Shown here: piece by piece, positions 20,063 to 55,429 of the stretch | Position numbering within the stretch: position 1 is the first letter of the stretch | How the letters are laid out: each line of letters begins with the position of its first letter | Assembly (NCBI RefSeq): GCF_000002425.4 | Contig: NC_037254.1 | Location: forward strand, 24,593,727-24,657,726 | From: Physcomitrium patens | Taxonomy: Eukaryota > Streptophyta > Bryopsida > Funariales > Funariaceae | DNA length: 64,000 nt | Direction: 5' to 3' | Position numbers and translations under genes: made by a program | The notes under the pieces: model-generated | Databases searched by the model: none | What the model saw: only the letters and a program-made list of their open reading frames with translations | What the model was told of the DNA's origin: nothing

Positions 20063-20063
20063 C

Positions 20064-21530
20064 TCAAACGGTGGCCGCGGCCCGGAGGACCAGCACTTCC
20101 AGGGTGAGCCCCGGACCGAATCCAATGAAGAAGCCAAACTCGCTGCCCTCTCCCAGCGTCGACGCCCCCATCTTGACCGACCTCTGGCGAATCTGATCCA
20201 GCACGAACAACACCGACGCCGACGACATGTTGCCGTACTCCGACAGTATGTCCCTGCTCCCCTGCATCTTGTCCTTGGTCAGCTTCAGCTTCGCCTCCAC
20301 CTGGTCCAGAATGGCCGGGCCTCCCGGGTGCACCGCCCAGAACATCTCGTTCCAATCGGGCGAACCGACGCACTTCCTGGCCTCGTTCAAGAACTTCTCG
20401 ATGTTCTTGGAGATCAGCCCTGGCACGTCCTTCATGAGGTGGAAGATGAGCCCCGCCTCCGTCAGATGCCCATCAATGGCTCCATCACTCTCTGGCAAGA
20501 TCGTCTCGCCCGCCCAGTGCACCTCGAACAGTGCTTTCTCCACCTCCGGCTTGGGATCGGATCCCACCACGTACACTCCGGCGCCATCGCCGAACAGGGC
20601 CGAGCCCACCAAGCCGTCCAAGTGGTTCTCGCTGGGTGCGCGGTATGTGACGGCCGTGACCTCGCTGGCCACCGCCAACACCCTGGCGCCCTTGTTGTTC
20701 TCCGCCAGATCCTTGGCCACCCTGAGCACGGAAGCACCGCCAAAGCACCCGGTCTGGTACATCATGACCCGCTTCACCGTGGGCTTCAGGCCCAGCAGCT
20801 TGGCCAGGGCGTGGTCGGCTCCGGGCATGTTCACGCCGCTGGTGGTGGCGAACACGATGTGGGTGATGTCAGACTTGCGGCCGCCCCACTCCTTGATGGC
20901 CCTCTGGGCTGCCTCCGCGGCGAGCTTGGGGACCTGGACGACGACGATGTCGTGGCGGACGTTCAGGGAGGGCTCCATGTACGTGCAGATGCCGGGGTTA
21001 GCCTTGAGCACCTCCTCCGTGAGGAACATGTGGCGCTTGCGGATCCCCGACTTGTCACCTGCATCGACATTCATGGCCAAGCGTCAGCTGCCGTCGTAAG
21101 GGGCCGGAATCGACCCAATTTCAGGAACATCGCGACCGCCGCATTCCCATCTCGACGCCCGCAACAAATCACAAGTCGCAATTCTAATGCGCTCGCGCCG
21201 CGCAGCCCGTGCAATGAGCACGTCGTCGAGCGCGGCTGGGGGTGAGGGCCGGCCCACAGGGAACAGTGAGCACATCACGAGCCGCGAAGAGAGTCACACG
21301 GTGGAGGTGGACTTACAGATGCGCTTGAATTTGGCCTTCAGGGCGTCCTTCTCGCCGCAGTTGGTGATGTTGAAGAAGAAGTCGGGGTACTCGCTCTGCA
21401 GGAACTCCGCGGGAGGCACCGCAGTGCCGACGCCCAACACACATGCTGGTCCCTCAGCGCGAGGCTGGCCTCTGGGAAGCGCGCTCCTTGTGGCAGCACC
21501 CTGAACGTCGACTTCTCCGCTTGGTGCCAT
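20064..21530 (-). CDS. CHS: Chalcone synthase, left copy (two exons)
   Basis: Type III polyketide synthase joining one p-coumaroyl-CoA with three malonyl-CoA to give naringenin chalcone, the entry step of flavonoid synthesis; cytosolic, homodimeric. Exons are 21530-21317 and 21058-20064, giving 402 residues, near the usual 390-400. The 258-bp phase-1 intron (GT...AG) splits the Cys72 codon, the conserved CHS intron site. The catalytic triad Cys176, His315, Asn348 and the gatekeeper Phe227 and Phe277 are present, as is the GFGPG loop near the C-terminus. ATG 21530 is the first ATG after the TATA box. The protein is identical to the right copy; one silent base differs. The 3' flank differs from the right copy, so message stability may differ. 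Confidence 0.95.
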
Positions 21531-21680
21531 GGGCACGTTTGGGTTCGGAATGGATGTTGAGTCCGAGCTGCTCACTCGGGGTTGTCTCGAAGCGGCCGGA
21601 CAATGAGCGTTCAATTTGTTCCGGTGAACTGGCCCTGCAGCCACTGCCTAGGATCTCTTAACCTGCCAAAATCAGGGGGC

Positions 21681-21685
21681 TTATA
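21681..21685 (-). promoter_or_regulatory. TATA box, left CHS
   Basis: TATAA on the minus strand, about 155 bp upstream of the CHS ATG, implying a start near 21655. A palindromic ACGT core, GACGTC, lies at 22077-22082, about 390 bp further upstream; this is a bZIP/HY5-type site often found in light-regulated CHS promoters. Both occur identically in the right arm. Confidence 0.65.
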
Positions 21686-22340
21686 TGCAACGCACAATGT
21701 GCCGGCGAGAAGGTGGCCCGAGTTGAGCAGACGTCTCGCTCTGAATCTGTTAGCTCACAAGTTTGTTGCTCTATCTGCTACACTTCCTGAATGCGTTGAG
21801 TGCACAGAGAAGTTCTCTGTTGTGCAGCTTCATTCAGCATCGCTTTCTAGATGAGGGGAGTGTGCAGAGTGAATGTGGTGGCCCACAAGCCAGGGAAGAG
21901 CGTTGAATGATGTAGGACTTCGACAGGAACAGTGCAGTCTTGGCGACTTTTTTCTTGCGGCTTTTGTTCCTTTTCCAGGCGCCTGTTGGTTTCTTTCAAC
22001 GTTGACAGCCTTTTGAGATGACCTGGAGTTTACTTCGGCTGCTGGCTTGTTCGGACCATCCGCATGAAGCTTCGAAGACGTCACAATCCACTTTCAAAAT
22101 CCTAGGGAACTATGACAATTGGTCCGTATGGTTGTCAACGAACAGCTGCAGACTTTAGATTCTTCACTTCAAATATAAATCGTAAGGGAATCGTCCGGTG
22201 GGTTTGCCATTATTAGCTCATGCTGGAACATGTTTCCGTCTGAGTGGAAATGCAGCATTTTCCTATTTGTGAACCAATACTGTATGGCCATATGATGACG
22301 GGGGTGTCTATAGCCATGACACATGTGCTTTGCCAATTTT

Positions 22341-22454
22341 ACTTTGGCTGCTTGGTTGTTCTGACCATCCGCTTATTCCTTAAGCATGAAGCTTCTAATT
22401 CGTCACAATCCTCTTTCAAAATCCTAGGGACTATGAGAGTTGGTAGAAAAGTGG
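22341..22454. repeat. Diverged second copy of the distal CHS upstream segment
   Basis: Bases 22343-22440 resemble 22037-22123 inside the arm in the same orientation, sharing GACCATCCGC, GCATGAAGCTTC and TTTCAAAATCCTAGGGA. They differ by a small insertion and scattered changes. The segment is absent from the right side. Confidence 0.75.
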
Positions 22455-22459
22455 TGAAG

Positions 22460-23004
22460 TGTCATGGATATTCACATTTATTCCAATAATTATTTATATG
22501 TTTCGATAGAAGTTGGTAAATTTGGATTATTATCTTTTAAAAGTGTATCTTTTAAGAAAACTTCTTAAAAGTTCAATTGAAACCAATTTGTTTATACATG
22601 TATTTGTAGTTGATTTGTAGGTTAGAAATTTCATCAATAATTTAAGTATGTACAACACATGTTGGTAGCTTTTTGAATAATTTAAGTATGCTCCACTTTT
22701 ATATAAATCTTGTTTTGCAAGTTAAGACATGTATCTACCAAATTCAACATATGTTGGAGATCTTATAGAATATTGCCACGTAGCTCCTAGTTAGATAATA
22801 TATATGGAAGCAAATGTAAAACCTACTTCATTCTTGTCAATGCCTTTTTAATCTTTAGACTTGTTTCAAGACTTTTTAGTATTTTTGGCTTTAGGAAGTG
22901 CTAATATAATTCAATATATTTACACTTTTGAGTGATTTCTAAGCCTTTTTAAATGACACATATATGTATTGTAGTTTTTTTCTTCAAGATTCTTATCCTT
23001 GATA
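22460..23004 (+). repeat. D2 5' LTR
   Basis: Starts TGTCATGG and ends CTTGATA, aligning with the D3 LTR. A TATA region lies near 22798, followed by ATTCTTGTCAA at about 22830, the equivalent of the self-priming segment in D3. The primer-binding site after 23004 is degraded. Confidence 0.75.
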
Positions 23005-23149
23005 ATTTGACTACAATATTGATTTATTATTATTGTTTTGTTTTAGAAGTGAATGAATTATCTCACTTCTATTGTTGTAATTTAAAATTTGTGGTCTATC
23101 CACCTTTAAATAAATAATTAAAAAATATTAACAATGATTTTTTTCTAAA

Positions 23150-24350
23150 AGAGAGTGGATTATTTCTTGTTGTAAAATTTTTTATTTAATATTTTAGATT
23201 TCAAATTATTTTCATCTTATTTAGTTTTTAGAATTTATTTGAGTTGGTTATTGAAAAAAGAAAAAAGAAACAAAAAACAAAAATTAAATACTACTTTTAT
23301 TGGAAGTAAAAATAGATATCCAACTATTAGAAATCTTTACAAGCTTGTGAACATTCTAAGAGTAGAAATCTTACATATTTCTAACATGAATCATGGAGAT
23401 ACTATTCCTACATATATGGAAGAAGTTCAAAATCTATGCCGTAAAGTTGTGCAATTGAAAGAAGCAAGTAGATCAAAATCACAACCAGTTTTAAAAAGTC
23501 TTATTTCTACAAGTACAAGAAGTAAGGATTAGTATGCCAGAGGAGTTTGATGGAATAAGATTAAAATTTTAAAGATTTTTACAAAAAATTAAGTTCTATT
23601 TAAGATTGCATCTTTTCCAATACCTCAATAGATTTACTCAAGTTAGATTTATAGGCGCACTTCTATCAAAAAGTATTCTTTCTTGATTTGTACCTTTGAT
23701 GGAAAAAAATTTAGAATTACTTTATGATTTGAATCCTTTTTTGGAAGTATTTATGGCTGTATTTGTAAAAAATTATAAAAAATGGATAGTAGAAATCAAG
23801 CTTGAATCCGTACAATAATGATTTATTTAACTACCACATATGTTCCTGAATTCCAAAATCTTATTTGCAACATGGATTGGAATAATAAAGCTATTATCAA
23901 TCAATTTTGATATAGATTAAAAGATAATATTAAAGATTTATTGATGATAATATTAAAAGTAATTTTTTTGAAGCACCTTATTGTTCAAGCCATCGTGTGC
24001 AATAATCAACTCATTAAAAGATAGAAAGAATAAAGATTTAATTAAAAAAATACAAGTTAAGCAATAGTAATATCTTCTAAGTTTTTAGAAGCTTATTTGT
24101 TTAAGTAAAAGCTTATGCAAATTAATACGATACATTTTAAACCTCTTATTGAGCAAAAAAGAATTTATTATTGTTAAGAAGGTTTGTATTTAATTTCTAA
24201 AGAGTCCAAGCACATTACTCAATATTATCCAAAGAAATAACAAAATCTCAAAATAAAGAGCATGGTTGCCAAAGATGACAATGTGTTTGAAAATGAGTTT
24301 TTCCAACTACAATAAGGACTATGCAGCTAAAATCCTGCATGATCTCTAGT
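23150..24350 (+). pseudogene. D2 gag remnant
   Basis: Longest open part 23239-23532, then a decayed capsid region (an EEFDGIRLKF-like block near 23545, colinear with D3 gag). A broken zinc-knuckle region lies near 24170-24230. No intact product is possible. Confidence 0.65.
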
Positions 24351-24359
24351 AAAGGTCAT

Positions 24360-24714
24360 ATTCTTTCCTCAAATCCCTCATCTGTTTTTACAAAATAAGT
24401 TTTTTTAACATCAAAAAATCACAATGTCTTAGCATTGTTAGATTTAGGAGCCTCAACTTATTTTATAGATGAAGACTTTGTCAAAATATAAGATATATTC
24501 TTAGTTAAGAAAACCAAATCTATGCATATAAAAGTAATAGATGGTCGTTTTTTGTCTTTTGAAGATGTTATACATAAAATTATTCTTTTAGATATAGCAT
24601 CTAATAGTCATTATAGTTTAATAATATTTAATATGATTAAATCTTCTTCTAATCAAATTATTTTAAAATAATTATGGCTAAAAAAACTATAATTCTTAAA
24701 TAAATTAGATTTCT
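24360..24714 (+). pseudogene. D2 protease, N-terminal part
   Basis: Colinear with the D3 protease: a LLDLGASTYFIDEDF-like block near 24437-24481 marks the active site (DSG changed to DLG). A WLKK-like block near 24670 follows, then repeat R interrupts. The end of the protease resumes at about 26400-26515. Confidence 0.7.
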
Positions 24715-26241
24715 ATTATCATAAGGCGTGATTTATAATCTAAAAATATACTAGATACTTGGTTGTAGAGAGTTTAGCTTTAATTTATTGGCCAAGCTTC
24801 AATAAAAGATTTATTTTTAATATAAAAAATAAATAAATGCAACAATATCAAAAGATATTTTATTAGTAAAAATCTTTTATATTTAAGAAGATTTATACAT
24901 AAGACTTTTTATAGCATCTAGAAATTTCATAACATCCTTTGTTATATCAAATCATAACTAATCATTTGCTAGTAAGTTAGATTTTTAATAATCTCAAGGA
25001 AAATCCACAATTTCCTTTCAAAAACTCATCTTTATATTATAATATTATCATAGCTCCATATCTCCATCTTTAACATATATTTAAAGACTTGACTCCCAAA
25101 ACACCCCTTTATTTTGTATAAAATGCTCAAATTGTGGCAAAGTCCTTTCAAAATATTTTTTTTTTTGAAAAGAATTTTTTTACTAAAATTAAGGATTTTA
25201 TATTTCTTGATCCATTTATTGAAATTTTTTCAAAATTCTAAATAATTTAGAATTTATCCTTAAGCTTTACCACAAAAAAAAAATTATAAATTTACTATAG
25301 ATTGTTTGGCATCTTAGAACTCCTAGTAGGTACTCTAAATTCTAATTTATAAGTATTCAAGAACTATTTTCATTATATTTCCAAATCCAAAATCGAAATA
25401 CCAAAAAATTTGGTATATAACTTGAAAAAATAATAATACAAATTTGTAGAAAATTTTAGACAAAGATTTGTTTAAATGCCCAAGATATAGTTAGAACCAA
25501 ACCTCTCATGAAATTGATTCTCCAACAAAACTCAATTTGAAAGTATTGTATTCAAGTAGTCACTGCTTCTTTAAATCCACTTTAAACCTCTTACTTTTTA
25601 TATGTAGAATATAGTTCTTTAATCAAAATTTCCAATAACTTAATTTGATCTTCAAAAGCCCTTCATATGCATGAGCTATGCTCCAAAGAATGACAAGAGG
25701 AATGATATCAGCACCTTCATTTTGAGCGCATATATCATCTTCTCAAAAACTCCAAATTATACAAAACTTTCACCAAAACTATATCTAAAATTCTAAAAAT
25801 AATGATTTTAAGCTTTGATGTTCAAATGTCTTCAAAAGAATAAGCCTAATTCTCAAAATTGTCTCAAGCAACCTCCTTGAAGTCCATTGGACATGACTTT
25901 TAGCCAATAGGAATAGAAATTTTTATCATCCATCTCCATTCATCTATATAGATGGCTTAACTATCATTTTTTATATACAAATTCTTTTGTAATTCATTTT
26001 CTAATAAGTTTTATATAATATGTATTCTAAATATCAAATAAATAAAATAAAATAAGATTTCAAGAATCACCAATGTATAATAAAGCTGATCCTAAATATA
26101 AAAAAATTATTATCAACATAAAATCAACCTTAACAATAGCTCTTTAGATTAACTACTTCAAAGTAGTAATCTAACCATATTTTGTAACTAACTAAAATCT
26201 AATAATGTGACTCTTCCTACATTGTATAATAAATTGTATAT

Positions 26242-26282
<41 letters not shown>

Positions 26283-26318
26283 TATTTTCATACCAAAGCA
26301 AAGCCACAATACAACATC
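24715..26318 (+). repeat. Repeat R, copy 3, inserted in D2 protease
   Basis: Starts at about TCATAAGGCGTGATTT and ends near ATACAACAT, in the same orientation as copy 4 (61889-63238). It shares the blocks near 25680-25960 (GCGCATATATC, CCTCCTTGAAGTCCATTGG, CTCCATTCATCTATATAGATG) and the CTACTTCAAAGTAGTAATCTAACC end block. It is longer than copy 4 and contains a TA microsatellite at 26245-26279. No ORF was recognised. Confidence 0.65.
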
Positions 26319-26559
26319 ATAACCTTGATTTTTTTCATAGTTTAGTCTAAGATTTTTTTAGGCTAGTAAAAATCCATAAGATTGATATTTCCAAACTATA
26401 ATTGATAGGTGTGGGAACTTTCTTGTATGCTGAAAATAAAGGATTTCCTTTTGTTATATATGCTATACCTATTGATGATGGAGAAAAGATTTCAAGTGGC
26501 ATTCCAATATAATATCAAGGTTATCAAGATGTTTTTTAAAAACTAAAATGTAGATATTC

Positions 26560-27183
26560 TTTTAAAGCATTATTTTTATGATTGTTCCATCAATCATAAA
26601 AGAAGAACTCAACTACCATTCACACCAATCTATAGCCTATCACAAAATGAGTTAGTTTCATTTAAAGAGAACATTAATAAGAATTTGGCTAAGAACTTCA
26701 TATTCTATTTTGAATTTTCAACTATGGCTCCTATCTTATTTGTAAAGAAAAAAGACAAATCTCTGCAAATAAATGTAAACTATTCAAGATTCAACCAGAT
26801 TACTATAAAAAATAGATATCATCTACTTTTGATTTTAAGACTTTTTAATCAATTGAATTAAGCAAAGATTTATAAAAATATAGATCTACAAGAAGAATAC
26901 AATCAAGTATGCATTAAAAAAAGAAATAAATGAAAAACTTCACTTCAAATCAAATATAAATATTTCAAATATAATGTCATGTCTTTTGCACTCATGAATG
27001 TACAAGCTACTTTTCAACATATAATGAATGATATCTTCTGTGAGTTTCTTGATAATTTTGTCATCTATTATTTAAACAACATCTTAATGTACTTTAAGTA
27101 TAAAAAAAAATATGAAGTTCAAATTTATTGTGTATTACAAAAACTAAGTGATATTGGATTGTACGCCAAGATAGAAAAGTAAA
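26560..27183 (+). pseudogene. D2 reverse transcriptase
   Basis: Colinear with D3 RT. The catalytic loop reads YLNN at about 27070, so both Asp codons of YxDD have become Asn, a G-to-A change on this strand. Several stops interrupt it. Confidence 0.8.
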
Positions 27184-27189
27184 TAATTT

Positions 27190-27900
27190 TACACTACTTG
27201 AGTTGACTATTTAAGATAAATCATTTTAAAAATTGGTCTTATAATGGATCTTAAGAAGCTCCAAGATATTCTTAATTAGGAAATTCCAAAAATAATCAAA
27301 GATGTATAATATTTTTTGAGATTTACCAATTATTAGAGAATCTCCATTTAGAACTTTTGTCAAGTTGCGACTTTTCTAGTACATCTCACATGCAAAGACA
27401 AGCATGAGTACAGCAATAAAATTGAAGTATTTTTTGAAGCCTTAAAGATAATATTTATTTTTGCACAAATTTTGTATTGCATAAATTTTTCTAAGACATT
27501 CTTTATGGAAACAAATGCATTAGACTTTATAATGGATGTTAATTTGTCACAAATAGAAGAAAATGACAAGCTCTATCTAATAGCTTTTTATTTTAAGTAA
27601 TTTTCAATAGCCAAGATTTACTATGAGATTTAAGACAAAGAACTTCTTGCAATCATTGATTCATTTCAAGAATGGCATCATTATTTGGAAGGCACCTTAA
27701 GTCTAATCTTTATATATATATAAATATGGATCACAAGAACCTCAAGTACTTCATATTGGGATATGATTTGAATTTTTTGAGTATGTTTTTATTAAGATTT
27801 GATCTCAAGGTCACTTATCTATTCAAAAAATAATAAGTTATCACAAACGTCCTATCTAGACATTCTTATTTTTTATTAAATAAAAAAATATATAACCTTT
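27190..27900 (+). pseudogene. D2 RNase H remnant
   Basis: Colinear with the D3 RNase H and the D3 sequence beyond A2 (43125-43420). Blocks such as [21 protein letters not shown] (about 27630-27690) are visible between stops. Confidence 0.7.
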
Positions 27901-28119
27901 GATCAACAAAGAATAAAACTCTTGAAGCAAAACGATTATCACCTTCAAGCAATAAAATCAATATTAATTGTTGATTCAATTTTTTTCAAGCAAATTCAAT
28001 CAAGTATGTCCTCTAATCTTTTTATTTATGACATTAAGAATAATTATTTTAAGTATTATGGTTCTTTTTAATTTGAATTTAAGAATAAATTATTTTATTT
28101 TAAAAAACAATTATACATT

Positions 28120-29264
28120 TTGAAAGACAAAGCAAAATTACATATTCTTTAAACTCATCATGACTTTTTAATAGTTAAGTATTTTGGATACAACAAGGCT
28201 TTAGAAGTAATATCTAGAGATATTTGGTGGTCTCAAATGTAGAAGGCAATAAAAGACTTTGTATAATCATATGATATTTATTCAAGATTCAAAACTCTTT
28301 ATCATCAACGTGATGGACTTCTTCAGTTATTTCCTATGTTGGAACAATCATGGTCTTGTACTTCTATGAATTTTATTATGGATATTTGGATTTTGGATTT
28401 GTATGATATTATATTTTTACTAATAGATTGTTTAACTAAAATGTCATATTTTGTACTATGTACAAAATCTATCATTAGTAAAGAAATGGCTAAGCTTTTG
28501 CTTGATATCATCTATTACTATCATAAATTATGTAAGGATATTATATTGGATAGGAACACTTAATTGTATTAAGATTTTGGAGAATCTTTTTTAAGATTCA
28601 AAAGGTGAAAATAAAGCTCTTTTCGGCTTTTTATCTTCAAATGGATGGGAAAACAAAACAAATAAATCAAATTTTGGAGTAGTATTTGATGTGAACTATC
28701 TACTATCATCAAGATGATTGGACAATTTTTTTGCCATTGGTAAAATTTGCATACAATAATTTGGTATATTCTCCTATTCAACAAATACCTTTCTTTATCT
28801 ATTATGCTTATCATCCATGACTTGATACTTTTGACTTTTCAAAAGTTCATAATCCTATAAAAGAAGATTTAGCAAATTATTTATCAAAGCTACATGCAAT
28901 AATGAAGGCGCAATTAAAAGAAGCTCATGAATGAAAAAAGATCAATACAGATGCCTATTACAAGGAACAACCACAATTCAATGTGGGCAATAAAATATGG
29001 TTACTTTGTTGTAATATAAAGACTACTTGTCTTTGTAACAAGTTGGACTATCATAGGCTTAAACCTTTTCCTATTTATGAACAAATCAATGTTATTGCTT
29101 ATCAATTACATCTACTAGCATTTATGAAGAACCATCATATATTCTACATGTCTCTTCTTCAACCATATAAGATAATGAATATCTTAAAAAAAAGAAAAAT
29201 GCCACCTCTTCCTATAAAAGTAGATAATAATCAAAAACTAGTAGAGAAAGAAGTCTTAAATTGA
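28120..29264 (+). pseudogene. D2 integrase with GPY/F-type end
   Basis: The zinc-binding region (about 28150-28290), a damaged DDE core (28336-28700) and the C-terminal VxLLxxNIKT-like and HxxFxMSLLxPYK-like blocks (28983-29264) match D3. Stops and frame breaks abolish function. Confidence 0.75.
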
Positions 29265-29415
29265 AAGCAATTCCAAAATAGATTAAAACAACTTATTCAT
29301 TGACAAAAATATGATATTAATGGATGTATATGAAAGTAAACAAAGAATCTTGCAAATATAGCTAAGAGAGTTGAAGCTTTTTATCAACAATGTCCATCAG
29401 AATCAAGATGAAAAA
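29262..29415 (+). pseudogene. D2 chromodomain remnant
   Basis: Reads as a decayed version of the D3 chromodomain (46006-46157) and stops at TGA near 29412. Only about 60 bases separate it from the D2 LTR, so D2 lacks the extra ORF found after the D3 chromodomain. Confidence 0.7.
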
Positions 29416-29780
29416 TAGCAAGATCCATGAGAGATGATGATTGCTTTTCATCACTAGAAGAGAAAATATCATCATGGATATATGTATATATTTCAATAAT
29501 TACATATATCATTAAGTCAAAGTAGATAAATATAGATTAATTTTATAATATCTTATAGAAAAGCTTCTTAGAAGCATCATAAATGTGATTTTGACTTTAT
29601 ATGTGTATGTATGTGATTAATAAATTAGAAATTTGGTCAACAACTTAATTATATATGACACATGTTGGAAGCTTGTAAAAGAGGCTAATGATATGGTACA
29701 AATATAAGAAACTTGCCTTGTAAGTTAAGACATATATCTAATAAAGTCAACACCTGTTGGCGGTCGTATAGATGATTGCC

Positions 29781-30341
29781 TGTCATGGATATAATCATGT
29801 AAGCTATTAATAACATATACAAATAGGTAGAAGTAAGTAAAAGTAGGTAAAAATAAGTTAATTCTATAGTATTTAATATGAAAGCTTCCTAGAAGCTTCA
29901 TAGACGCTGCTTTGATTTCATAGGTGTCTTTAATTGACTTTTTGGATTAGAAACGTGGTCAACAAGTTGGCCATGTGCCACATATGTTGTTAGCTTGAAG
30001 ATCAAGCTAACTATGTGGCCCACACATAAAAAAACTTGCCTTGTAAGTCAAGGCATGTGTTCTACAAAGTCAACACATATTAGAGGTCCTATAGAACATT
30101 GCCATATAGCCCCTCGTTAGATAGTATATATAGAGACAAGAGTGAAGGCTTCTTCACTCTTGTCAACTCCTTTCTTGCTTCCAGTTTAGTTTCAAGGGTC
30201 TCTAGTTTCTTTGTCTTTTGGCAATAGCCATTCCAGTTTTTCTTTCAATATACATACTTGTTTATTTATATTTTGTTACCTTTCTTTGAGTGAAGGCTCA
30301 CTTGTCTGAATTGTTTTTTCATCGAGTTCTTGTCCTTGACA
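29781..30341 (+). repeat. D3 5' LTR with hairpins and predicted start
   Basis: U3 holds a strong palindrome (29977-30019). The TATA box is at 30125-30132. A perfect 13-bp hairpin with a 4-nt loop lies at 30135-30164. The segment ACTCTTGTCAA at 30156-30166 begins 31 bases after the TATA start, where transcription should begin. Confidence 0.88.
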
Positions 30342-30343
30342 GA

Positions 30344-33934: not shown

Positions 33935-34015
33935 TAGCCCCACTCCCATCTGTGCAGCGTCCTCGCAAACATAGAACCGATACATAACTAAAAAAAAAAA
34001 ACTTCTCCAAAATTT

Positions 34016-42000: not shown

Positions 42001-42301
42001 CCCCACTCTCAGTTAACGGTCTCAGAAGAAACCCTGGCCTATTGATCAAATTTTCAGCAAGTGCTCTTGGTAATTTCTCTAACGGTATATACTTCTGAAA
42101 TATTAGATGTCGATTAGCTTCTGGGTATGCTCGAATATGACGACAGGCATGCAACCATGGCTTAATCCAGCTTTGTCTATGATTCCTTTTTAACTTTCTT
42201 TGTTGCTCGTTTCGCAACAAATTTCTTGCTTGCGATCTCTCTATTCTTTCTCTTGACTGCCGTATTTTCTTTACTGTTAAGTTCTCATTCTTAATAACCA
42301 T
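36032..42301 (-). pseudogene. A2 Gag-Pol polyprotein (one frame, two premature stops)
   Basis: ATG 42301 to TAA 36032-36034, 2090 codons in a single frame. Gag occupies about residues 190-420. Zinc-knuckle motifs lie near residues 504, 525 (irregular), 654 (His replaced by Tyr) and 687. The protease has VDGGSS near residue 939, and RT has FLDD near 1382. RNase H lies about 1500-1620 and ends in an ADHLSRL block. The integrase has an HHCC finger near 1740 and a DDE core about 1790-1900. Two stops break it: TGA at 38465-38467 (expected CGA) and TAG at 36152-36154 (expected TGG, as in A1). Both are single transitions. Fusion of gag and pol in one frame is a feature of the copy. Confidence 0.92.
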
Positions 42302-42392
42302 ACTCTTTCATTATATTCTTCTGCGACTGCTACCTATTTCCCATCTACTTCAACCGGCAGTTAAAACCTAACACTCCATGCTATTATCAATT

Positions 42393-42410
42393 TCCCCGGC
42401 AGCGGCGCCA
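42393..42410 (-). promoter_or_regulatory. A2 primer-binding site (tRNA-Asp type)
   Basis: On the minus strand the site reads TGGCGCCGCTGCCGGGGA, three bases after the 5' LTR. Against the 3' end of plant tRNA-Asp, as I remember it, it matches at 17 of 18 positions. The same primer is known for Athila-type elements, which supports the lineage call. Confidence 0.75.
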
Positions 42411-42413
42411 AAA

Positions 42414-43119
42414 TGTGATTGTCGTTTTACTTACTCTAACTTATCTAATCAGAGTAAACCTGTATAGGGGAATTCGAACACAGGGAAAGAATATCGCATG
42501 AGCTTACACGTTAGGGTCACACAATTAACTGTATTCCGCACTACTTAAAACATCCAGGAAACACTACAATGCTTTCCACTTCCTAATAATACTCCACCAT
42601 CACTGATAACAACATGTAATCCCGCACTATCCTAAATGACAGGACATAATCATACTATAATCCAAATTCTGGAGTTCTTCACCATTAACTGCCTTCACAT
42701 TACAGTGTTTCACACAAACACAGACTCATTCTCTCTGCTCAACTACATTCAGATTTCAGCATTCAATCTCTCTTCTTCTCATTCAATAACATATAATTCC
42801 ATTCACACTTTCATTCCATGATTCACTTCACAATATTCAGAAACTCTCAATACTCTTATTTCAAAGAACATAACAACAAAAGAAAAGAGGTAGCACCAAG
42901 CTTACCCCGGCTCACACTATCACAGTAATGGCCCCTACTTCCTCTCTCCCATCCTCCTTATGCTACCACGAGATACCAACTGCTACATCTCTAATGAAAA
43001 CTGCTTTTCCTAACTATTCATCCATTTTACCTACTGAACTACCTTTTCAACAGTCATCTATCCCTGTTTACACTATGAACTAAGTATCTACAATTCAACA
43101 AATAACTACTTATTCTACA
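42414..43119 (-). repeat. A2 5' LTR
   Basis: 706 bp, nearly identical to 33229-33934. It lies at the upstream end of the minus-strand gag-pol. Confidence 0.93.
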
Positions 43120-43124
43120 CCTTT

Positions 43125-43676
43125 CATTCAAGAAAATTCTCAGCAGCAGAAATCAATTATGAGATCCACGAAAAAGAACTTCTTGCAATTGTGGATTCTT
43201 TTCAAGAATGGCATCATTATCTAGAAAGCGCTTCGAGTCCAGTCACCGTGTATACGGATCATAAGAACCTTGAATATTTTATGTCAGCACATGTATTAAA
43301 TCGACGCCAAGCTCGTTAGAACATGTCTTTATTAAGATTCGAGTTCATCATCACTTATCGGCCAGGAAAACAACAAGGTTTGTCCGATGCCTTGTCTAGA
43401 TGTTCTTATCTTGCACCAAAAGAAAGAGATGCAGCTTTTGAGCAACAAAGAACGGTTCTCTTGAAGCCGGAGCAATTTCATCTTCGAGCAATAAAATCAA
43501 CATTGACTGTTGATTTAACTTTTATTAAGCAAGTCCAGTTAAGTATGTCTTTAGACCCTCTTGTTCATGATATCAAGAATAGTTTTTCTAAATCTCATGA
43601 TCTCTCTAAATTTGAATTCAAGAACAACCTACTCTATTTTGAAGGAATTCTATATATTCCAAAAGAAGAAGCACGT
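43125..43676 (+). pseudogene. D3 RNase H end and linker to integrase
   Basis: Resumes the frame cut at 33228: RKFSxAExNYExHEKELLA-type block, [10 protein letters not shown] and a GKQQGLSDALSR block that closes RNase H. One stop lies at about 43317 (expected TGG). It is interrupted at 43676 by the B-family solo LTR and resumes at 44881. Confidence 0.85.
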
Positions 43677-44876
43677 TGTCGTGTTGTAACACGAGTATAC
43701 CGTGAAAATATAAAGAAAGGGGACTTTTATTAATATTTAGTTACCTCGAATATTGGGGGCAACGACCAATTCCAGTGCAAATACTGGGAGGCCAGGGTCA
43801 GTCACCCCGTTATAGTCAACCGGGGCATACTGAAATGCTCCGTTCGATTCCAATAACAGGAGTCAGTACAAAAAGGAAAAGGACCAATTCAACAATGGAT
43901 GAGCCTGGTTCCAAGAGCCAATTGGATCCAATTTCAAGACATCCAATCCAAATCTTACTACGGGCCTCTCAGCCAATCTGACGCGAAGGACCAATTTGAC
44001 CCAGTTACGGGAACATCCAGGTCTTACTACGGCACTCTTAGCCAATATGAGACCTGAATTGGTCGGGCGACTCAATGTGGTCTCAATTACGGGGTTTTGA
44101 TTCCGTTTCAGGCTCTCCTGTTCTCTGTGCCATTTTAGGGAACGTTATTTTCGGTAAAAAGATCTCTTAAAGGTAAAAATGGAGAAAAAAGCTCTGACGA
44201 CGGGAGCCAATTTTGGATCCAAGCTCTGACGACGGGAACCAATTTTGGATCCAAGACGAAAGATTGAAAAAATTCAGAATTAAGGTTAAGAAATGAGAGG
44301 GGAGAGGGGAGAGTTTTTTTTTGAAAAGGATCAGAGAGCTAGCTGTATGCTTCGGGCAGGGAAAAAAGACAGAGAATCGGATTTTTTTTTTTCTTCATAG
44401 GGTTTTGGGAAGACTGAGGCAATCGTTGCTGAAGTCAGTGTTGTAATGGTGAATTGGGATTTTTAATGAAGTGGGTTTGATTACTCTTGACTGTTTTGTG
44501 AAATCAAGTTACGTCTGTGATTGAAGAATTAAAAGGATATCTATAGGACTGAGTATGCGGAGTGAATGAAATTTATCGGGTTAATCTCACAAGACAGTCA
44601 GTGGATACAAGATGGTGAGTATAAAGCAGTATCGAAGATTAGCAGTTTGAGTTGTTCGGGGTTCTCTGCAACATCTAGAGACCTACCGGCTGGGGCAAAA
44701 AGGACTTCCGCAAGCAGTCGAAGGGCATCCGTATAGATTTACGGTGTATTCTTGCAGTCATTTATATTCCAACAGTTAATAACCGATAGACTGCTTGAAT
44801 ATTGGCAAATCTCTATACTACCTTCTACAGCGCGACACCCGGCACGTTCTTGAGCAAAAAAGCACGTAATACGACA
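43677..44876 (+). mobile_element. Solo LTR of element B family, inserted in D3
   Basis: 1200 bp from TGTCGTG to ACGACA, matching the B LTRs along their length with internal deletions. Target duplication ACGT (43673-43676 and 44877-44880). Removing it restores the D3 frame between RNase H and integrase. Confidence 0.92.
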
Positions 44877-44880
44877 ACGT

Positions 44881-46008
44881 TTACGTATTCTTCAAGCTTG
44901 TCACGACTTCCCAACAATAGGACATTTTGGATATAATAAGACTTTAGAGCTGATATCTAGGGATTTTTGGTGGCTTCAAATGTGGAAGGCAGTCAAAGAG
45001 TTTGTACAATCATGTGATATTTGCACAAGATCAAAAACTCCTCGTCATCGACCTTTTGGACTTCTTCAGCCATTATCCATTCCAGAACAACCATGGTCTT
45101 CTGTTTCTATGGACTTCATCACGGATCTTTCAATCTCAGGTTCTTATGACTCTATATTCATGATAGTAGATCATTTTACTAAGATGGCACATTTTGTACC
45201 ATGTACAAAATCTATCACATGTAAAGAAACAGCTAAACTCTTTCTTGACAATATCTATCACTATCATGGATTATCCAAGGATATTATATCAGATAGGGGA
45301 ACTCAATTTATATCAAGATTTTGGCGGACTCTTTTTCAAGATTCTTAAAGTGGATATAAAACTATCTTCGGCATTCCATCCTCAAACTGGTGGACAAACG
45401 GAGCATGTTAATCAAGTTTTAGAGCAATATTTAAGATGTATCATTAATTACCAACAAGATCATTGGATAACTCTTTTGCCATTGGCAGAGTTTGCTTACA
45501 ATAACATGATACATTCTTCTACAAAACAAATACCTTTCTTTGCTAATTATGATTATCATCCATCGCTTAATACTTTTGACTTTTCAAAAGTTGATAATCC
45601 TGCTGCGAAAGATTTGGCAATTCATTTATCAGAGCTACATGCAACGATGAAGGCGCAGTTAAAAGAGGCTCAAGAACAACAAAAGGTCAATGCGGATGTC
45701 TATCGAAAGGAACAACCATCATTCCTCTTGGGTGATAAGGTATGGCTACTTCGTCGTAATATCAAGACCACTCATCTTTGTGACAAGTTGGACTATCAAA
45801 GACTTGGACCATTTTCTATTTCTACACAAATCAATCCAGTTGCATATCGTTTACATCTATCGGAGTCAATAAAAATCCATCCAGTATTCCACATGTCTCT
45901 TCTTGAACCATACAAGATAGTGGACATACCAAGAAGACGACAAGCTCCACTTCCTCCTATAGAAGTGGACAATAATGAAGAGTTTGAAGTAGAAGAAGTC
46001 TTATATTG
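44881..46008 (+). pseudogene. D3 integrase with GPF motif
   Basis: HHCC finger (about 44890-45030, with CDICTRSK), a DDE core with first Asp in the SMDFITDL block (about 45105), second Asp in SDRGTQF (about 45290) and Glu in GGQTEHVNQ (about 45395). A one-base frameshift lies near 45335. The C-terminal GPF block (about 45805) and HPVFHMSLLEPY (about 45880) follow. It would insert cDNA into chromatin if repaired. TGA at 46006 interrupts before the chromodomain. Confidence 0.88.
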
Positions 46009-46157
46009 AAGGCGGTGCCGAAATAAATTAGAATATCTTATCCATTGGCGCGGATATGCTATTAGTGAATGCACATGGGAGCCAATAACGAATCTTGCAA
46101 ATGCAGCAAAGTCGGTGGAGGCTTTTCATCGACGACATCCATCAAAATCAAGATGAA
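46006..46157 (+). pseudogene. D3 chromodomain
   Basis: Directly after the stop at 46006 the frame reads a chromodomain: a short beta start, the LEYLIHWRGY block, then CTWEPITNL and a C-terminal helix ending at TGA 46155-46157. The aromatic residues Tyr and two Trp are visible. Chromodomains direct integration to methylated-histone chromatin. The intervening stop probably replaces TGG. Confidence 0.85.
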
Positions 46158-46250
46158 AAACTTCTTTACAAAAAAAACAACATCTAGGCAAGATAATATT
46201 CTACTTTCAATTCTTGTTCGTAGCTTCTTTGTAGAAGTGACGCTCAGGAG

Positions 46251-46673
46251 ATGGAGAACCAACAACCAGCGGATTCGACTCAAGAGCCTTCATTTGCTAA
46301 CTTGCCAGATGAGACATTACGATTTTCACAACCTTTAAGATGACGCAATCAAGATGAAGATCTTCAAGAACGACATGTTCTTCCTCGAATAGATGGCGAG
46401 ATACAACACGTTTGGTATCACGATTTGGGAAGGGACTCCCGATGTATGGTGATTGTGTTAGAGGTAGGAACAACTCCTGATGGTGTTTCAAATATTCTAT
46501 TCAAAGGAAGTTACGAAGGCCTCAACAATGATTAAATAACTGGGTGGTTGTCCCGCCCTGATATGGGACACTACCGATGGTTGAGAGGCCCTATCAATCA
46601 TCTTCAAAGAGATCAAAGATCAGAGTTTGTGGTGAATACAATTCATCGCATCATAGATTTCCTCAACATATGA
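46251..46673 (+). pseudogene. D3 extra 3' ORF, 140 codons, unknown function
   Basis: ATG 46251 to TGA 46671-46673, with two in-frame stops at 46341 (TGA, CGA by one transition) and 46533 (TAA, CAA by one transition). Otherwise the frame reads as an ordinary mixed-composition protein with a MENQQPADSTQEPS start, a VWYHDLG block, and a C-terminal half rich in Trp, Arg and His. It lies between the chromodomain and the purine tract. D2 has no room for it, only about 60 bases. No known domain was recognised. It could be a captured host fragment or a lineage-specific accessory protein. Confidence 0.5.
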
Positions 46674-46714
46674 TGACCGCTCCTCGTGGAACTCGTCCCT
46701 AGAAGGGGGGGTAA

Positions 46715-47275
46715 TGTCACGGACATAATCATGAAAGATAATAATTACATATACAAATAGGTAGAAGTAAGTAAAAGTAGCTAAAAATAAGTTAATTCTA
46801 TAGTATTTAATATGAAAGCTTCCTAGAAGCTTCATAGACGCTGCTTTGATTTCATAGGTGTCTTTAATTGACTTTTTGGATTAGAAACGTGGTCAACAAG
46901 TTGGCCATGTGCCACACATGTTGTTAGCTTGAAGATCAAGCTAACTATGTGGCCCACACATAAAAAAACTTGCCTTGTAAGTCAAGGCATGTGTTCTACA
47001 AAGTCAACACATATTAGAGGTCCTATAGAACGTCGCCACATAGCCCCTAGTTAGATAGTATATATAGAGACAAGAGTGAAGGCTTCTTCACTCTTGTCAA
47101 TTCCTTTCTTGCTTCTAGTCTAGTTTCAAGGGTCTCTAGTTTCTTTGTCTTTTGGCAATAGCCATTCCAGTTTTTCTTTCAATATACATACTTGTTTATT
47201 TATATTTTGTTACCTTTCTTTGAGTGAAGGCTCACTTGTCTGAATTGTTTTTTCATCGAGTTCTTGTCCTTGACA
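46715..47275 (+). repeat. D3 3' LTR
   Basis: 561 bp, direct copy of 29781-30341, preceded by a purine tract with a run of seven G (46701-46711). Followed by TTGCC and the rest of the D2 LTR. Confidence 0.92.
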
Positions 47276-47280
47276 TTGCC

Positions 47281-47508
47281 ATGCAACTCATAGTTTGATA
47301 GTATATATAGACGCAAATGTAGAGCTTTCTTGATTCTTGTCAATGCTTTTCTAATTCTTAGTCTTATTTCAAGACTTTCTAGTCTTCTTATCTTTGGTAA
47401 TAGTCAATTTAGTTTAATATATTATCATCTTTGAATGATTTTTAAGTCTTTTTGAGTGATACAAGAATATATTGGGATTTTTTTCTTTCATGATTCATAT
47501 CTTTGATA
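47281..47508 (+). repeat. D2 3' LTR, distal part
   Basis: Continues the LTR cut at 29780: TATA region near 47302, then ATTCTTGTCAA, ending CTTTGATA at 47508 and followed by the D2 target duplicate TGAAG. Confidence 0.8.
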
Positions 47509-47513
47509 TGAAG

Positions 47514-48944
47514 TAGAATACAAACAAGATCTTACAATATAAAACTAAGTATTTACAATAAATGAATTTTTTTTGTAGAATGAAAAAAAATAGAAAATTA
47601 TTTAAATGAGATTTTTTCTTACTATAAATTTTATATAAAAATAAAAAAAATTTTAAAATATATAAAGATAAAAATACTAAAAAATAGTTTAGTGCTAATA
47701 TTAATAACTAGATTGTTGATAAACTCAAAGTTAAAAATTATTTTAAGAAGTAGAATAAATATAAGTGAGATTTTTAATTTTAATTGAATTTTGTTGTTAC
47801 TATTGCTTTAAAAATAAATCATTGCTTAAAACATAAATAAGATTTTTTAATAGTTGATTTTAAGAAATTAATTAAAATTTTAATTTTCTTTTTTAATTCT
47901 AATAATATCGTTTGATTATGATGATAATTCAAATTTTTAAATGTCATTAGTAATTTGTGTTTTTAATTTGTTGTTATTGTAGTTTAAAAATTTGAGTTCA
48001 AATAAATGATTCAATTAAAACATATAAATATTTAATTAGATTAGGATCTTAGAATTAAGATTTCAAGAATAAATGAGGGTTTTTTTGATCTTAAGCAATA
48101 AGCCTATTTAATTGAAATGATTTTATTTAAGCTAATAAAGAAATTATTTTTCTATAATAATGTCAAGTTTAAGGCCATGTAACTAGTTTAATAAAGAGCT
48201 TTTGTTGCTAATAAATTAACTTACAGGTTTCTAAAGTAGGACATTAAATATTCAAAAAAATTAAAATATAATATATATATATATATATATATATTAAAAA
48301 ATAAGTACAATTTTATTTATAGATCATTTGAAAGCTATTAAGCTATTACAATGTTGACAAGAACTCTTGCTTATCTAAATTGTCTATTGTTGTGTCTTTA
48401 AAATTTAGGTGAGTTATCTTGCATTCCAACCAAATGGTTGTGAGCACAAATTAGTCAACATAAACACAATCCTTGCTCAATGAAAAAATCTTGAATTCCG
48501 TCGCATGAAAATGTATTGAATTCATGATTAACATATCTCAAATGAAAATGAAAAATGAAAAAAGGACATTGTTTGAATTCACCTGTCCACGAAATTTATA
48601 GTGGATATTAGAAGTTTTCAATCAATAGGAGCATTACATGCCGTAATCAAATTGTTGAATAATGAATAACAAATGCTGTTAATTCACAATCACAAAACTT
48701 GTCTACACATATGCAAAGCTTGTGTTTGTAAAGCATGGAAATGTTTTACACAGAAATTGCATTTAATATCTGCCTGGGTCATGAGCTGATACGTATAAGT
48801 TAAATTCCATTCTTTGTGAAAGCGTCTATTTGAATGTAAATCAACTATCTCGCTCTCGTGAGGTTCTTTAATATATCCAAATGGTCATGCCACATGTCAA
48901 AGACCGCGGTAAAGTCTAACAATAAGACTCTCCAATCGATGGTC
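47514..48944. other. AT-rich spacer between D2 and the right CHS arm
   Basis: No gene is supportable. Bases ~47690-48245 match ~56875-57435 in direct orientation (repeat S). A TA microsatellite lies near 48271-48294. The last ~150 bases (48790-48944) are less AT-rich and unique here. Confidence 0.6.
47690..48245 (+). repeat. Repeat S, copy 1
   Basis: Diverged match to ~56875-57435; the best block contains ATTGAAATGATTTTATTT and the following GCTAATAAATTGAC-like stretch. No ORF and no clear termini. Confidence 0.55.
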
Positions 48945-49599
48945 AAAATTGGCAATGCACATGTGTCATGGCTCTAGACACCCCCGTCATCATATGGCCA
49001 TACAGTATTGGTTCACAAATAGGAAAATGCTGCATTTCCACTCAGACGGAAACATGTTCCAGTATGAGCTAATAATGGCAAACCCACCGGACGATTCCCT
49101 TACGATTTATATTTGAAGTGAAGAATCTAAAGTCTGCAGCTGTTCGTTGACAACCATACGGACCAATTGTCATAGTTCCCTAGGATTTTGAAAGTGGATT
49201 GTGACGTCTTCGAAGCTTCATGCGGATGGTCCGAACAAGCCAGCAGCCGAAGTAAACTCCAGGTCATCTCAAAAGGCTGTCAACGTTGAAAGAAACCAAC
49301 AGGCGCCTGGAAAAGGAACAAAAGCCGCAAGAAAAAAGTCGCCAAGACTGCACTGTTCCTGTCGAAGTCCTACATCATTCAACGCTCTTCCCTGGCTTGT
49401 GGGCCACCACATTCACTCTGCACACTCCCCTCATCTAGAAAGCGATGCTGAATGAAGCTGCACAACAGAGAACTTCTCTGTGCACTCAACGCATTCAGGA
49501 AGTGTAGCAGATAGAGCAACAAACTTGTGAGCTAACAGATTCAGAGCGAGACGTCTGCTCAACTCGGGCCACCTTCTCGCCGGCACATTGTGCGTTGCA

Positions 49600-49604
49600 T
49601 ATAA
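49600..49604 (+). promoter_or_regulatory. TATA box, right CHS
   Basis: TATAA 151 bp upstream of ATG 49755; start expected near 49630. No ATG occurs between that point and 49755. GACGTC at 49203-49208 is a candidate bZIP site. Confidence 0.65.
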
Positions 49605-49754
49605 GCCCCCTGATTTTGGCAGGTTAAGAGATCCTAGGCAGTGGCTGCAGGGCCAGTTCACCGGAACAAATTGAACGCTCATTGTCCGGCCGCTTCGAGA
49701 CAACCCCGAGTGAGCAGCTCGGACTCAACATCCATTCCGAACCCAAACGTGCCC

Positions 49755-51221
49755 ATGGCACCAAGCGGAGAAGTCGACGTTCAGGGTGCTGCCACAAGGA
49801 GCGCGCTTCCCAGAGGCCAGCCTCGCGCTGAGGGACCAGCATGTGTGTTGGGCGTCGGCACTGCGGTGCCTCCCGCGGAGTTCCTGCAGAGCGAGTACCC
49901 CGACTTCTTCTTCAACATCACCAACTGCGGCGAGAAGGACGCCCTGAAGGCCAAATTCAAGCGCATCTGTAAGTCCACCTCCACCGTGTGACTCTCTTCG
50001 CGGCTCGTGATGTGCTCACTGTTCCCTGTGGGCCGGCCCTCACCCCCAGCCGCGCTCGACGACGTGCTCATTGCACGGGCTGCGCGGCGCGAGCGCATTA
50101 GAATTGCGACTTGTGATTTGTTGCGGGCGTCGAGATGGGAATGCGGCGGTCGCGATGTTCCTGAAATTGGGTCGATTCCGGCCCCTTACGACGGCAGCTG
50201 ACGCTTGGCCATGAATGTCGATGCAGGTGACAAGTCGGGGATCCGCAAGCGCCACATGTTCCTCACGGAGGAGGTGCTCAAGGCCAACCCCGGCATCTGC
50301 ACGTACATGGAGCCCTCCCTGAACGTCCGCCACGACATCGTCGTCGTCCAGGTCCCCAAGCTCGCCGCGGAGGCAGCCCAGAGGGCCATCAAGGAGTGGG
50401 GCGGCCGCAAGTCTGACATCACCCACATCGTGTTCGCCACCACCAGCGGCGTGAACATGCCCGGAGCCGACCACGCCCTGGCCAAGCTGCTGGGCCTGAA
50501 GCCCACGGTGAAGCGGGTCATGATGTACCAGACCGGGTGCTTTGGCGGTGCTTCCGTGCTCAGGGTGGCCAAGGATCTGGCGGAGAACAACAAGGGCGCC
50601 AGGGTGTTGGCGGTGGCCAGCGAGGTCACGGCCGTCACATACCGCGCACCCAGCGAGAACCACTTGGACGGCTTGGTGGGCTCGGCCCTGTTCGGCGATG
50701 GCGCCGGAGTGTACGTGGTGGGATCCGATCCCAAGCCGGAGGTGGAGAAAGCACTGTTCGAGGTGCACTGGGCGGGCGAGACGATCTTGCCAGAGAGTGA
50801 TGGAGCCATTGATGGGCATCTGACGGAGGCGGGGCTCATCTTCCACCTCATGAAGGACGTGCCAGGGCTGATCTCCAAGAACATCGAGAAGTTCTTGAAC
50901 GAGGCCAGGAAGTGCGTCGGTTCGCCCGATTGGAACGAGATGTTCTGGGCGGTGCACCCGGGAGGCCCGGCCATTCTGGACCAGGTGGAGGCGAAGCTGA
51001 AGCTGACCAAGGACAAGATGCAGGGGAGCAGGGACATACTGTCGGAGTACGGCAACATGTCGTCGGCGTCGGTGTTGTTCGTGCTGGATCAGATTCGCCA
51101 GAGGTCGGTCAAGATGGGGGCGTCGACGCTGGGAGAGGGCAGCGAGTTTGGCTTCTTCATTGGATTCGGTCCGGGGCTCACCCTGGAAGTGCTGGTCCTC
51201 CGGGCCGCGGCCACCGTTTGA
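49755..51221 (+). CDS. CHS: Chalcone synthase, right copy (two exons)
   Basis: Same enzyme as the left copy. Exons are 49755-49968 and 50227-51221, with the 258-bp phase-1 GT-AG intron at Cys72. It encodes 402 residues with Cys176-His315-Asn348 and Phe227/Phe277. The start is the first ATG after the TATA box, in the context GCCCATGGC. An in-frame extension upstream would need a non-ATG start and is not accepted. It is convergent with the LHCII gene 1.95 kb downstream. Exon sequence is strongly GC-rich at third positions. Coding DNA differs from the left copy by one silent base, so both should give the same protein while using different 3' flanks. Confidence 0.96.
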
Positions 51222-51222
51222 G

Positions 51223-55384: not shown

Positions 55385-55429
55385 ATTACTACTTTGAAGT
55401 AGTTTTAATCTATTTTGGCACTGCATAAA

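What the first reader, a model, noticed from the sequence alone, without database searches (positions are those of the whole stretch)
20063..51222. Near-identical 2.28-kb CHS palindrome around far older retrotransposon DNA
The arms (20063-22340 and 48945-51222) show about four differences, including in promoter and intron. The spacer holds D2, whose two LTRs are heavily diverged. If the duplication predates D2, the arms must have been kept alike by gene conversion, as in Y-chromosome palindromes. If it postdates D2, a recent inverted copy was placed across existing repeats. Either is unusual for a flavonoid gene. Inverted CHS copies in soybean trigger siRNA silencing, so small-RNA effects are worth checking.
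Basis: partly seen in the sequence, partly recalled or inferred. Interest (0 to 1): 0.78.

Follow-up and report, generated by a model that had tools for sequence, protein, structure and literature searches.

The report
Moss pigment-gene copies kept identical
The two mirror-image copies of a flavonoid (chalcone synthase) gene are present in this moss assembly, but they belong to a cluster of at least seven full or partial copies whose gene cores are nearly identical even where their surroundings differ by several percent, which is best explained by the copies overwriting one another (gene conversion).

Summary
The 2,278-bp inverted repeat is real in the assembly: 4 substitutions, no gaps. The window is taken as Physcomitrium patens chromosome 2 (coordinate match). 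The arms are not an isolated palindrome but two of seven near-identical CHS copies or fragments over 308 kb, in both orientations. The spacer holds three nested LTR elements, LTR K80 0.36 (D3), 0.027 (D2), 0.003 (R1); the arms are 0.0018. So D2's LTRs are not heavily diverged; D3's are.

In five pairs of copies the gene, intron and promoter are almost identical while shared flanks are 3-11% diverged. Copy D matches C at 19 of 19 informative sites beside the gene, then G at 46 of 48 beyond (P = 9e-15), although D and G lack D2 at their shared D3. Evidence for B-C exchange itself is more indirect. Mosaic flanks suggest crossovers, perhaps a spacer flip.

Near-identical clustered genes and conversion are already proposed for this moss. 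siRNA silencing is untested. A gapped assembly is the main caveat.

The parts
20063..22340 (-). Left arm = copy B: complete CHS gene plus about 810 bp upstream
   Evidence: Inverted match to 48945-51222, 4/2278 differences; own-genome place C2:24613789-24616066
20064..21058 (-). CHS exon 2 of copy B (stop codon at 20064-20066)
   Evidence: Splicing gives a 402-aa reading frame identical in A, B, C, D
21059..21316 (-). CHS intron of copy B, 258 bp, GT...AG
21317..21530 (-). CHS exon 1 of copy B (ATG at 21528-21530)
48945..51222 (+). Right arm = copy C: complete CHS gene plus about 810 bp upstream; exon 1 49755-49968, exon 2 50227-51221
17565..20062 (.). 3' flank type alpha of copy B; shared with D (0-1 difference per 200 bp from 18565 on, about 10% at the far end) and, from 18592 on, with G
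18048..18591 (.). Solo LTR of the D2 family in flank alpha, present in B and D, absent at the matching site of G
22341..22459 (.). 5' flank type I of copy B: second, 77%-alike copy of a promoter stretch (22032-22123), ending at the D3 target-site duplication; among the copies read, shared only with E
22460..47508 (+). D3: old LTR element, related to D2, holding D2 and R1; 5' LTR 22460-23004, 3' LTR 29470-29780 + 47281-47508; duplication TGAAG
   Evidence: LTRs 151/538 different, K80 0.36; alignment; internal likeness to D2 75%
29781..47275 (+). D2: LTR element inserted in the 3' LTR of D3; LTRs 29781-30341 and 46715-47275, duplication TTGCC; site empty in copies D and G
   Evidence: LTRs 15/561 different; empty sites; Pfam RVP_2, RVT_1 and Tf2-1-like SH3
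33229..43119 (-). R1: young LTR element (Ty3/gypsy by domain order, a recalled rule) inserted in D2; LTRs 33229-33934 and 42414-43119, duplication CCTTT; site empty in the second copy of the block (E-F)
   Evidence: LTRs 2/706 different; Pfam gag, RT, RNase H, integrase; empty site
47509..48944 (.). 5' flank type II of copy C; shared with D, F and G; starts with the second TGAAG of D3
48400..48944 (.). Part of flank II where D is identical to C (0/545) while C and G differ at 19/544; D switches to G-like sequence at 48400
51223..64000 (.). 3' flank type beta of copy C, shared with copy A to the end of the window (the next bases are a 10,000-N gap); no substitution in the bins 50005-55504, four gap columns

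Best explanation
The two arms are copies B and C of a dispersed CHS cluster on chromosome 2 of Physcomitrium patens. Shown in the assembly: seven copies or fragments lie within 308 kb in both orientations; in five pairs (B-D, B-G, C-D, C-G, D-G) the gene core (CDS, intron, upstream region) is almost identical while the flanks these pairs share differ by 3-11%; flank types are combined in mosaic fashion; copy D switches from C-like to G-like sequence at one point. Inferred: the C, D and G lineages are older than the D2 insertion, and B and C probably already stood head-to-head about 1.5 kb apart before D3 inserted between them. Breaks in one copy are repaired from another (ectopic gene conversion), which overwrites tracts of about 2-4 kb. 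Occasional crossovers inside the CHS core join flanks in new combinations, and one may have inverted the spacer. Retrotransposons that arrived later (D2, then R1) pushed the arms 26.6 kb apart without stopping the exchange. The likely consequence is several interchangeable intact CHS genes, that is gene dosage for flavonoid synthesis; this consequence is not tested.
For: Islands of identity: C-G core non-coding 0/937 against 19/544 in the adjoining flank (P = 4e-9); D-G 1/937 against 59/1564 in flanks (P = 3e-11); B-G 3/937 against 39/999; C-D 1/1068 in core non-coding and 0/545 in near flank, then 47/1114 and 228/2073 further out; B-D 4/1068 in core non-coding and 1/1671 in near flank, then 55/826. 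Switch: where C and G differ, D = C at 19 of 19 sites inside and D = G at 46 of 48 outside (P = 9e-15). TE clock: D and G carry the same D3 junction without D2. Order by divergence: D3 LTRs 0.36 > C/D outer flank 0.04-0.11 (uncorrected) > D2 LTRs 0.027 > block copy 148/16090 > R1 LTRs 0.0028 > arms 0.0018. Most of the B-C unit with D3 and D2 but without R1 is repeated as E-F, so both arms predate that copy, yet they differ less than the block copies do (4/2278 against 148/16090, P = 3e-5; non-coding only 3/1068, P = 0.026). Three of 4 arm differences lie in the last 119 bp next to the spacer (simulated chance 0.001 for either end). Selection is an unlikely cause: matches outside this cluster are confined to the exons. 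Mosaic flanks: B alpha/I, C beta/II, D and G alpha/II.
Against: B and C share no flank, so the island test cannot be made on that pair itself; exchange between them rests on the block copy (weak for non-coding sequence, P = 0.026) and on each being near-identical to D and G. Other pairs have flanks as alike as, or nearly as alike as, their cores: A-C (no substitution over 5.5 kb), B-E and C-F (block copy, about 0.9%); these look like plain recent duplication. All data come from one assembly with two exact 10,000-N gaps here and a 100-N gap in G; read mixing could add false identity, though copies 3-11% different should be separable. Retrotransposon and flank DNA may mutate faster than genes, but flank II is the same DNA in C, D and G and still switches. 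That B and C both predate D3 rests on reading the 119-bp flank I as an old piece of CHS promoter. A spacer inversion is only one way to get the flank combinations.
Confidence: 0.82

Rival explanations
1. One recent inverted duplication: one arm was copied from the other after D3 and D2 were in place, and had no time to diverge.
For: Arm divergence (K80 0.0018) is as low as that of the youngest element R1 (0.0028; Fisher P = 0.63). A and C share 14.5 kb at 99.3% with no substitution over 5.5 kb, so recent copying happens here.
Against: The E-F block repeats parts of both arms with D3 and D2 but without R1, so the pair is older than that block copy, 148/16090. D and G show the same core joined to the same D3 junction without D2. 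Cores are almost identical between copies whose flanks differ by 3-11%.
Confidence: 0.1
2. Assembly artefact: reads of fewer true CHS genes were placed or mixed so as to give false copies or false identity.
For: Two exact 10,000-N gaps, one cutting copy F and one at the window end; a 100-N gap in copy G. The soybean CHS inverted-repeat locus was misassembled or gapped in two public genome versions (PMC6710647, passages read).
Against: Copies differ in flanks, in presence of D2, R1 and a solo LTR (D2 and R1 with clean empty sites), and in private substitutions. Mixing reads could hide small differences but hardly 3-11%.
Confidence: 0.07
3. Purifying selection keeps the cores alike while flanks drift.
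For: The encoded protein is identical in A, B, C, D and CHS is well conserved.
Against: Identity covers the intron and about 810 bp upstream, which found no match in the CHS copies outside this cluster (checked again on six loci). Flank II itself is 0/545 between C and D but 19/544 between C and G.
Confidence: 0.01

Closest known systems
Near-identical tandemly arrayed genes of P. patens (PMC3729371 and PMC3045890; passages read; the works they cite were not looked up)
   Same: Same species; near-identical clustered copies; PMC3045890 reports the suggestion of concerted evolution by gene conversion.
   Different: Here copies are dispersed over 308 kb among retrotransposons in both orientations, and a tract boundary, mosaic flanks and a TE clock are visible.
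P. patens PKS III clusters chr2 24507741-24814900 and chr19 (PMC5004622; passages read)
   Same: The same chr2 cluster by coordinates, reported as 95-100% similar copies; clustered copies are put down to tandem duplication.
   Different: The passages read do not describe inverted pairs, conversion tracts, TE nesting or flank mosaics.
Palindromes of mammalian Y and willow W chromosomes (PMC7023750; passages read)
   Same: Inverted near-identical arms judged older than they look from retrotransposon dating; gene conversion inferred; in willow four arms share sequence.
   Different: Here a 2.3-kb shared core and a 26.6-kb spacer instead of arms of about 20 kb; no sex linkage shown.
Soybean I locus CHS inverted repeat (PMC6710647, passages read; PMC3804491, listing with start of abstract)
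   Same: Inverted, clustered CHS copies; non-allelic recombination inside CHS genes makes hybrid genes; assembly trouble.
   Different: Soybean has two 10.91-kb arms separated by 5.71 kb that yield siRNA; here single divergent genes lie 26.6 kb apart and siRNA is untested.

Membership tests
Chalcone synthase (type III polyketide synthase) | Full-length match to solved CHS structures | tested here: met
   Best PDB chalcone synthases match over residues 10-400 or 11-400 with E about 1e-256
Chalcone synthase (type III polyketide synthase) | Catalytic Cys-His-Asn motifs and intact reading frame | tested here: met
   Three motifs present in the 402-aa protein; the triad is named in the abstract of PMC3431822 (listing); which motif holds which residue is recalled. 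A, B, C, D are intact
Chalcone synthase (type III polyketide synthase) | Makes naringenin chalcone | not testable with these tools
   No assay possible
Concerted evolution by ectopic gene conversion | Island of identity between diverged paralogous flanks, including non-coding sequence | tested here: met
   Met in five pairs (B-D, B-G, C-D, C-G, D-G); not testable for B-C, which share no flank; not seen in A-C, where the flank is as alike as the core
Concerted evolution by ectopic gene conversion | Switch of relationship at a tract boundary | tested here: met
   D = C at 19/19 sites inside, D = G at 46/48 outside
Concerted evolution by ectopic gene conversion | Duplication older than the identity suggests, by an independent clock | tested here: met
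   D2-empty relatives; block copy with D3 and D2
Concerted evolution by ectopic gene conversion | Paralogues within a species more alike than orthologues between species | not tested
   No related moss genome was available to the session (the genome has no relatives here)
Sex-chromosome-type palindrome | Long arms (tens of kb) around a comparatively small spacer | tested here: not met
   2.3-kb arms around a 26.6-kb spacer
Sex-chromosome-type palindrome | Location in a non-recombining sex-determining region | not tested
   No sex-linkage data
siRNA-generating CHS inverted repeat (soybean I locus type) | Small RNAs from the repeat that lower CHS mRNA | not testable with these tools
   No small-RNA data
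siRNA-generating CHS inverted repeat (soybean I locus type) | A transcript that crosses both arms | tested here: inconclusive
   Genes are divergent, so their own promoters do not do this; read-through from elsewhere is not excluded

The most novel reading that the evidence does not exclude
In this moss, dispersed inverted gene copies are kept almost identical across tens of kilobases of retrotransposon by frequent exchange, perhaps in haploid tissue, and crossovers between inverted CHS arms flip the block between them back and forth, so that strains differ in the orientation of the 26.6-kb spacer and in CHS flank combinations. The same would hold for the near-identical head-to-head CHS pairs seen on contigs 19 and 24.
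Probability: 0.35. Interest if true: 0.62.

Novelty: new member of a known kind. Interest (0 to 1): 0.45.

Why it matters
Near-identical clustered genes in Physcomitrium could come from recent duplication or from gene conversion. This locus helps to separate the two, because nested retrotransposons give an order of events and one copy shows a sharp conversion boundary. It offers a natural record of ectopic recombination in a plant known (recalled) for efficient homologous recombination, and warns that CHS copy number and per-copy expression in this moss are hard to read from short reads.

Tried and rejected
Transposon capture of the gene (Helitron, Pack-MULE): by eye, no target-site duplication or terminal structure at the arm ends; instead the ends are where flank types differ between copies.

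Residual homology between the outer flanks of B and C (17000-20062 against 51223-54300): none at E up to 1. Inner flanks: two LTR-family matches and short weak ones at E 7e-4 and above.

Left copy as 'original', right as 'derived' (my first reading from the promoter repeat): dropped, since crossovers can swap flanks.

Flanks of D and G as proof of a spacer flip: lowered to an inference, because their D3 is cut short (at window equivalents 27697 in D and 23400 in G) and flank I is missing in both.

Mismatch clustering alone (3 of 4 in 119 bp): suggestive only; for any 108-bp window the simulated chance is 0.024.

Species from proteins: in the 120 of 649 hits listed, named mosses were Ceratodon purpureus 90%, Sphagnum compactum 84% and a P. 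patens entry 82%, with unnamed hits of 77-93%. The 82% P. patens entry does not by itself support the species; the collection is clustered at 90%, so a closer P. patens protein may be hidden. R1's gag frame gave 4 unnamed hits of 34-52%. The species rests on the coordinate match.

Papers: 8 searches of the held library listed no paper that I recognised, from title or start of abstract, as describing this inverted pair. The older works cited in what I read (Koduri et al. 2009; Lang et al. 2008; references 3 and 10 of PMC3729371) were not looked up, so I make no claim that they lack it.

Clock in years: not attempted; no moss mutation rate was looked up.
Full report
WHAT WAS CHECKED. The arms 20063-22340 and 48945-51222 are inverted copies of 2,278 bp with four substitutions and no gap. 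Each holds a complete two-exon CHS gene (402 aa, 258-bp intron) and about 810 bp upstream. The proteins of copies A, B, C and D are identical, and the only coding difference between the arms is a synonymous GCT/GCC at codon 91. The protein aligns with PDB chalcone synthases over residues 10-400; of the 120 database hits listed, the named ones with the highest identity are mosses. B is read on the minus and C on the plus strand, so the genes are head-to-head and point away from the spacer. The other three differences (22222, 22311, 22329) are in the last 119 bp next to the spacer; none is in the intron.

WHERE IT IS. The window is contig C2:24593727-24657726 of a 470-Mb genome. Its near-identical matches on C2 from 24,507,926 to 24,815,734 coincide with the P. 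patens chr2 PKS cluster 24507741-24814900 of PMC5004622 (passages read), so I take the species as Physcomitrium patens. The near-identical places are A 24507926-24509642 (-), B and C (the arms), D 24696930-24699207 (+, full), E 24703490-24704570 (+, upstream half), F 24720789-24722275 (-, ending at a 10,000-N gap) and G 24813616-24815734 (+, with a 100-N gap). Pairs of these in stretches above 800 bp are 99.35-100% alike for A-F; G is 100% over 1,324 and 99.4% over 680 bases to B. CHS matches outside this cluster are 65-94% and confined to the exons (that tool scores only the best candidates).

THE SPACER. It is a nest of three LTR elements with target-site duplications. R1 lies in D2, and D2 lies in the 3' LTR of D3. 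LTR differences are 2/706, 15/561 and 151/538, against 4/2278 for the arms. The D3 duplication TGAAG ends B's inner flank (type I, 22455-22459) and begins C's inner flank (type II, 47509-47513), so these two flanks were neighbours before D3 inserted. Flank I is a 77%-alike second copy of a CHS promoter stretch. My inference is that two CHS genes stood head-to-head about 1.5 kb apart before D3.

THE CLUSTER IS A MOSAIC. B and D (and G from 18592 on) share the 3' flank alpha; A and C share beta. B and E share the 5' flank I; C, D, F and G share II. The stretch from inside B to inside C is repeated at 24703490-24722275 (E-F) with D3 and D2, less about 0.5 kb of D2, but without R1, whose site there is empty with one CCTTT. 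D and G carry flank II and the same D3 junction without D2, and the D2 site there holds one TTGCC. Relative to alpha, D3 points one way in B and the other way in D and G. A crossover between inverted arms, which flips the spacer, would do this; an unequal exchange could too.

THE CONVERSION EVIDENCE. (1) Islands. G against C: 0/937 in intron plus upstream core, 19/544 in the next 545 bp. D against G: 1/937 in core, 59/1564 in flanks. B against G: 3/937 in core, 39/999 in flank alpha. C against D: 1/1068 in core and 0/545 in near flank, then 47/1114 and 228/2073. B against D: 4/1068 in core and 1/1671 at 18392-20062, then 55/826 at 17565-18391. (2) Switch. Where C and G differ, D equals C at 19 of 19 sites up to D coordinate 24699752 and equals G at 46 of 48 sites beyond (Fisher P = 9e-15). 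D and G also share a 511-bp stretch that C and F lack. So D has taken its near flank, and presumably its gene, from a C-like copy; C itself lies in the opposite orientation. (3) Clock. D2 is absent from D and G, so their split from C at the shared D3 predates D2 in C's line, yet the cores differ by 0-0.1%. (4) B and C are both older than the block copy E-F, but differ less than the block copies do (4/2278 against 148/16090, P = 3e-5, coding included; non-coding only 3/1068, P = 0.026). Selection is an unlikely cause, since intron and promoter found no match in other CHS clusters.

RESULTS AGAINST OR LIMITING. B and C share no flank, so the direct test is not possible on the reported pair; it is made on B-D, B-G, C-D, C-G and D-G. 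In A-C (no substitution over 5.5 kb), B-E and C-F the flanks are nearly as alike as the cores; these look like recent duplications, so both processes act. Two exact 10,000-N gaps adjoin this material, so copy number is a minimum and assembly error is possible. The mismatch clustering by itself is modest. The far side of D3 is missing in D and G, so the flip is not proven.

GENERALITY. On contig 24 two CHS copies (12082018, 12102257) are in opposite orientation about 19 kb apart and differ at 1 of 2,780 bases. On contig 19 four copies are 98.5-99.97% alike over 2.6-3.7 kb, the first two in opposite orientation. Near-identical inverted CHS pairs therefore recur; I did not date these.

SILENCING. 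In soybean two 10.91-kb inverted CHS arms make siRNA (PMC6710647, passages read). Here the genes diverge and 26.6 kb, mostly retrotransposon, separates them, so a hairpin from a CHS promoter is not expected. No small-RNA data were available.

KNOWN OR NEW. Near-identical clustered genes in this moss are described in PMC3729371 (passages read), conversion among them is mentioned in PMC3045890 (passages read), and the cluster itself is listed in PMC5004622. The 8 searches of the held library listed no paper that I recognised as describing this inverted pair or its conversion tract; older key papers were not looked up. I rate it a new member of a known kind.

Noticed in passing
51555-56439: A 4.9-kb stretch with an Lhcb-like (chlorophyll a/b-binding, Pfam PF00504) reading frame at 53170-53976 (-) occurs three times in the region read: here, beside copy A (24509975-24514863), and inverted at 24532718-24537600, where no CHS match was listed (99.6-99.7% to the other two).
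   Followed up: partly
2998-11653: Another LTR element with 1.34-kb LTRs (50/1334 different); much of it (window 3258-10660) recurs inverted at 96.5-97.5% in C2:24584016-24589820.
   Followed up: no
55218-56613: A 171-bp direct repeat (93% alike) brackets a 1-kb fragment resembling D-family internal sequence (55397-56438); possibly a small non-autonomous element or a rearrangement.
   Followed up: no
18048-18591: Solo LTR shared by copies B and D and missing at the matching site in G; another marker for ordering the copies.
   Followed up: partly
L030, L008 (contig 24) and L031-L034 (contig 19): Further near-identical CHS copies with head-to-head inverted pairs on both contigs; copy chr24a and copies chr19a and chr19b are identical over about 750 bp and 1-3% different around it, up to 12% further out against chr19b.
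   Followed up: partly
L023, C2:24699753-24700263: A 511-bp stretch in copies D and G that is absent from C and F; insertion or deletion not decided.
   Followed up: partly
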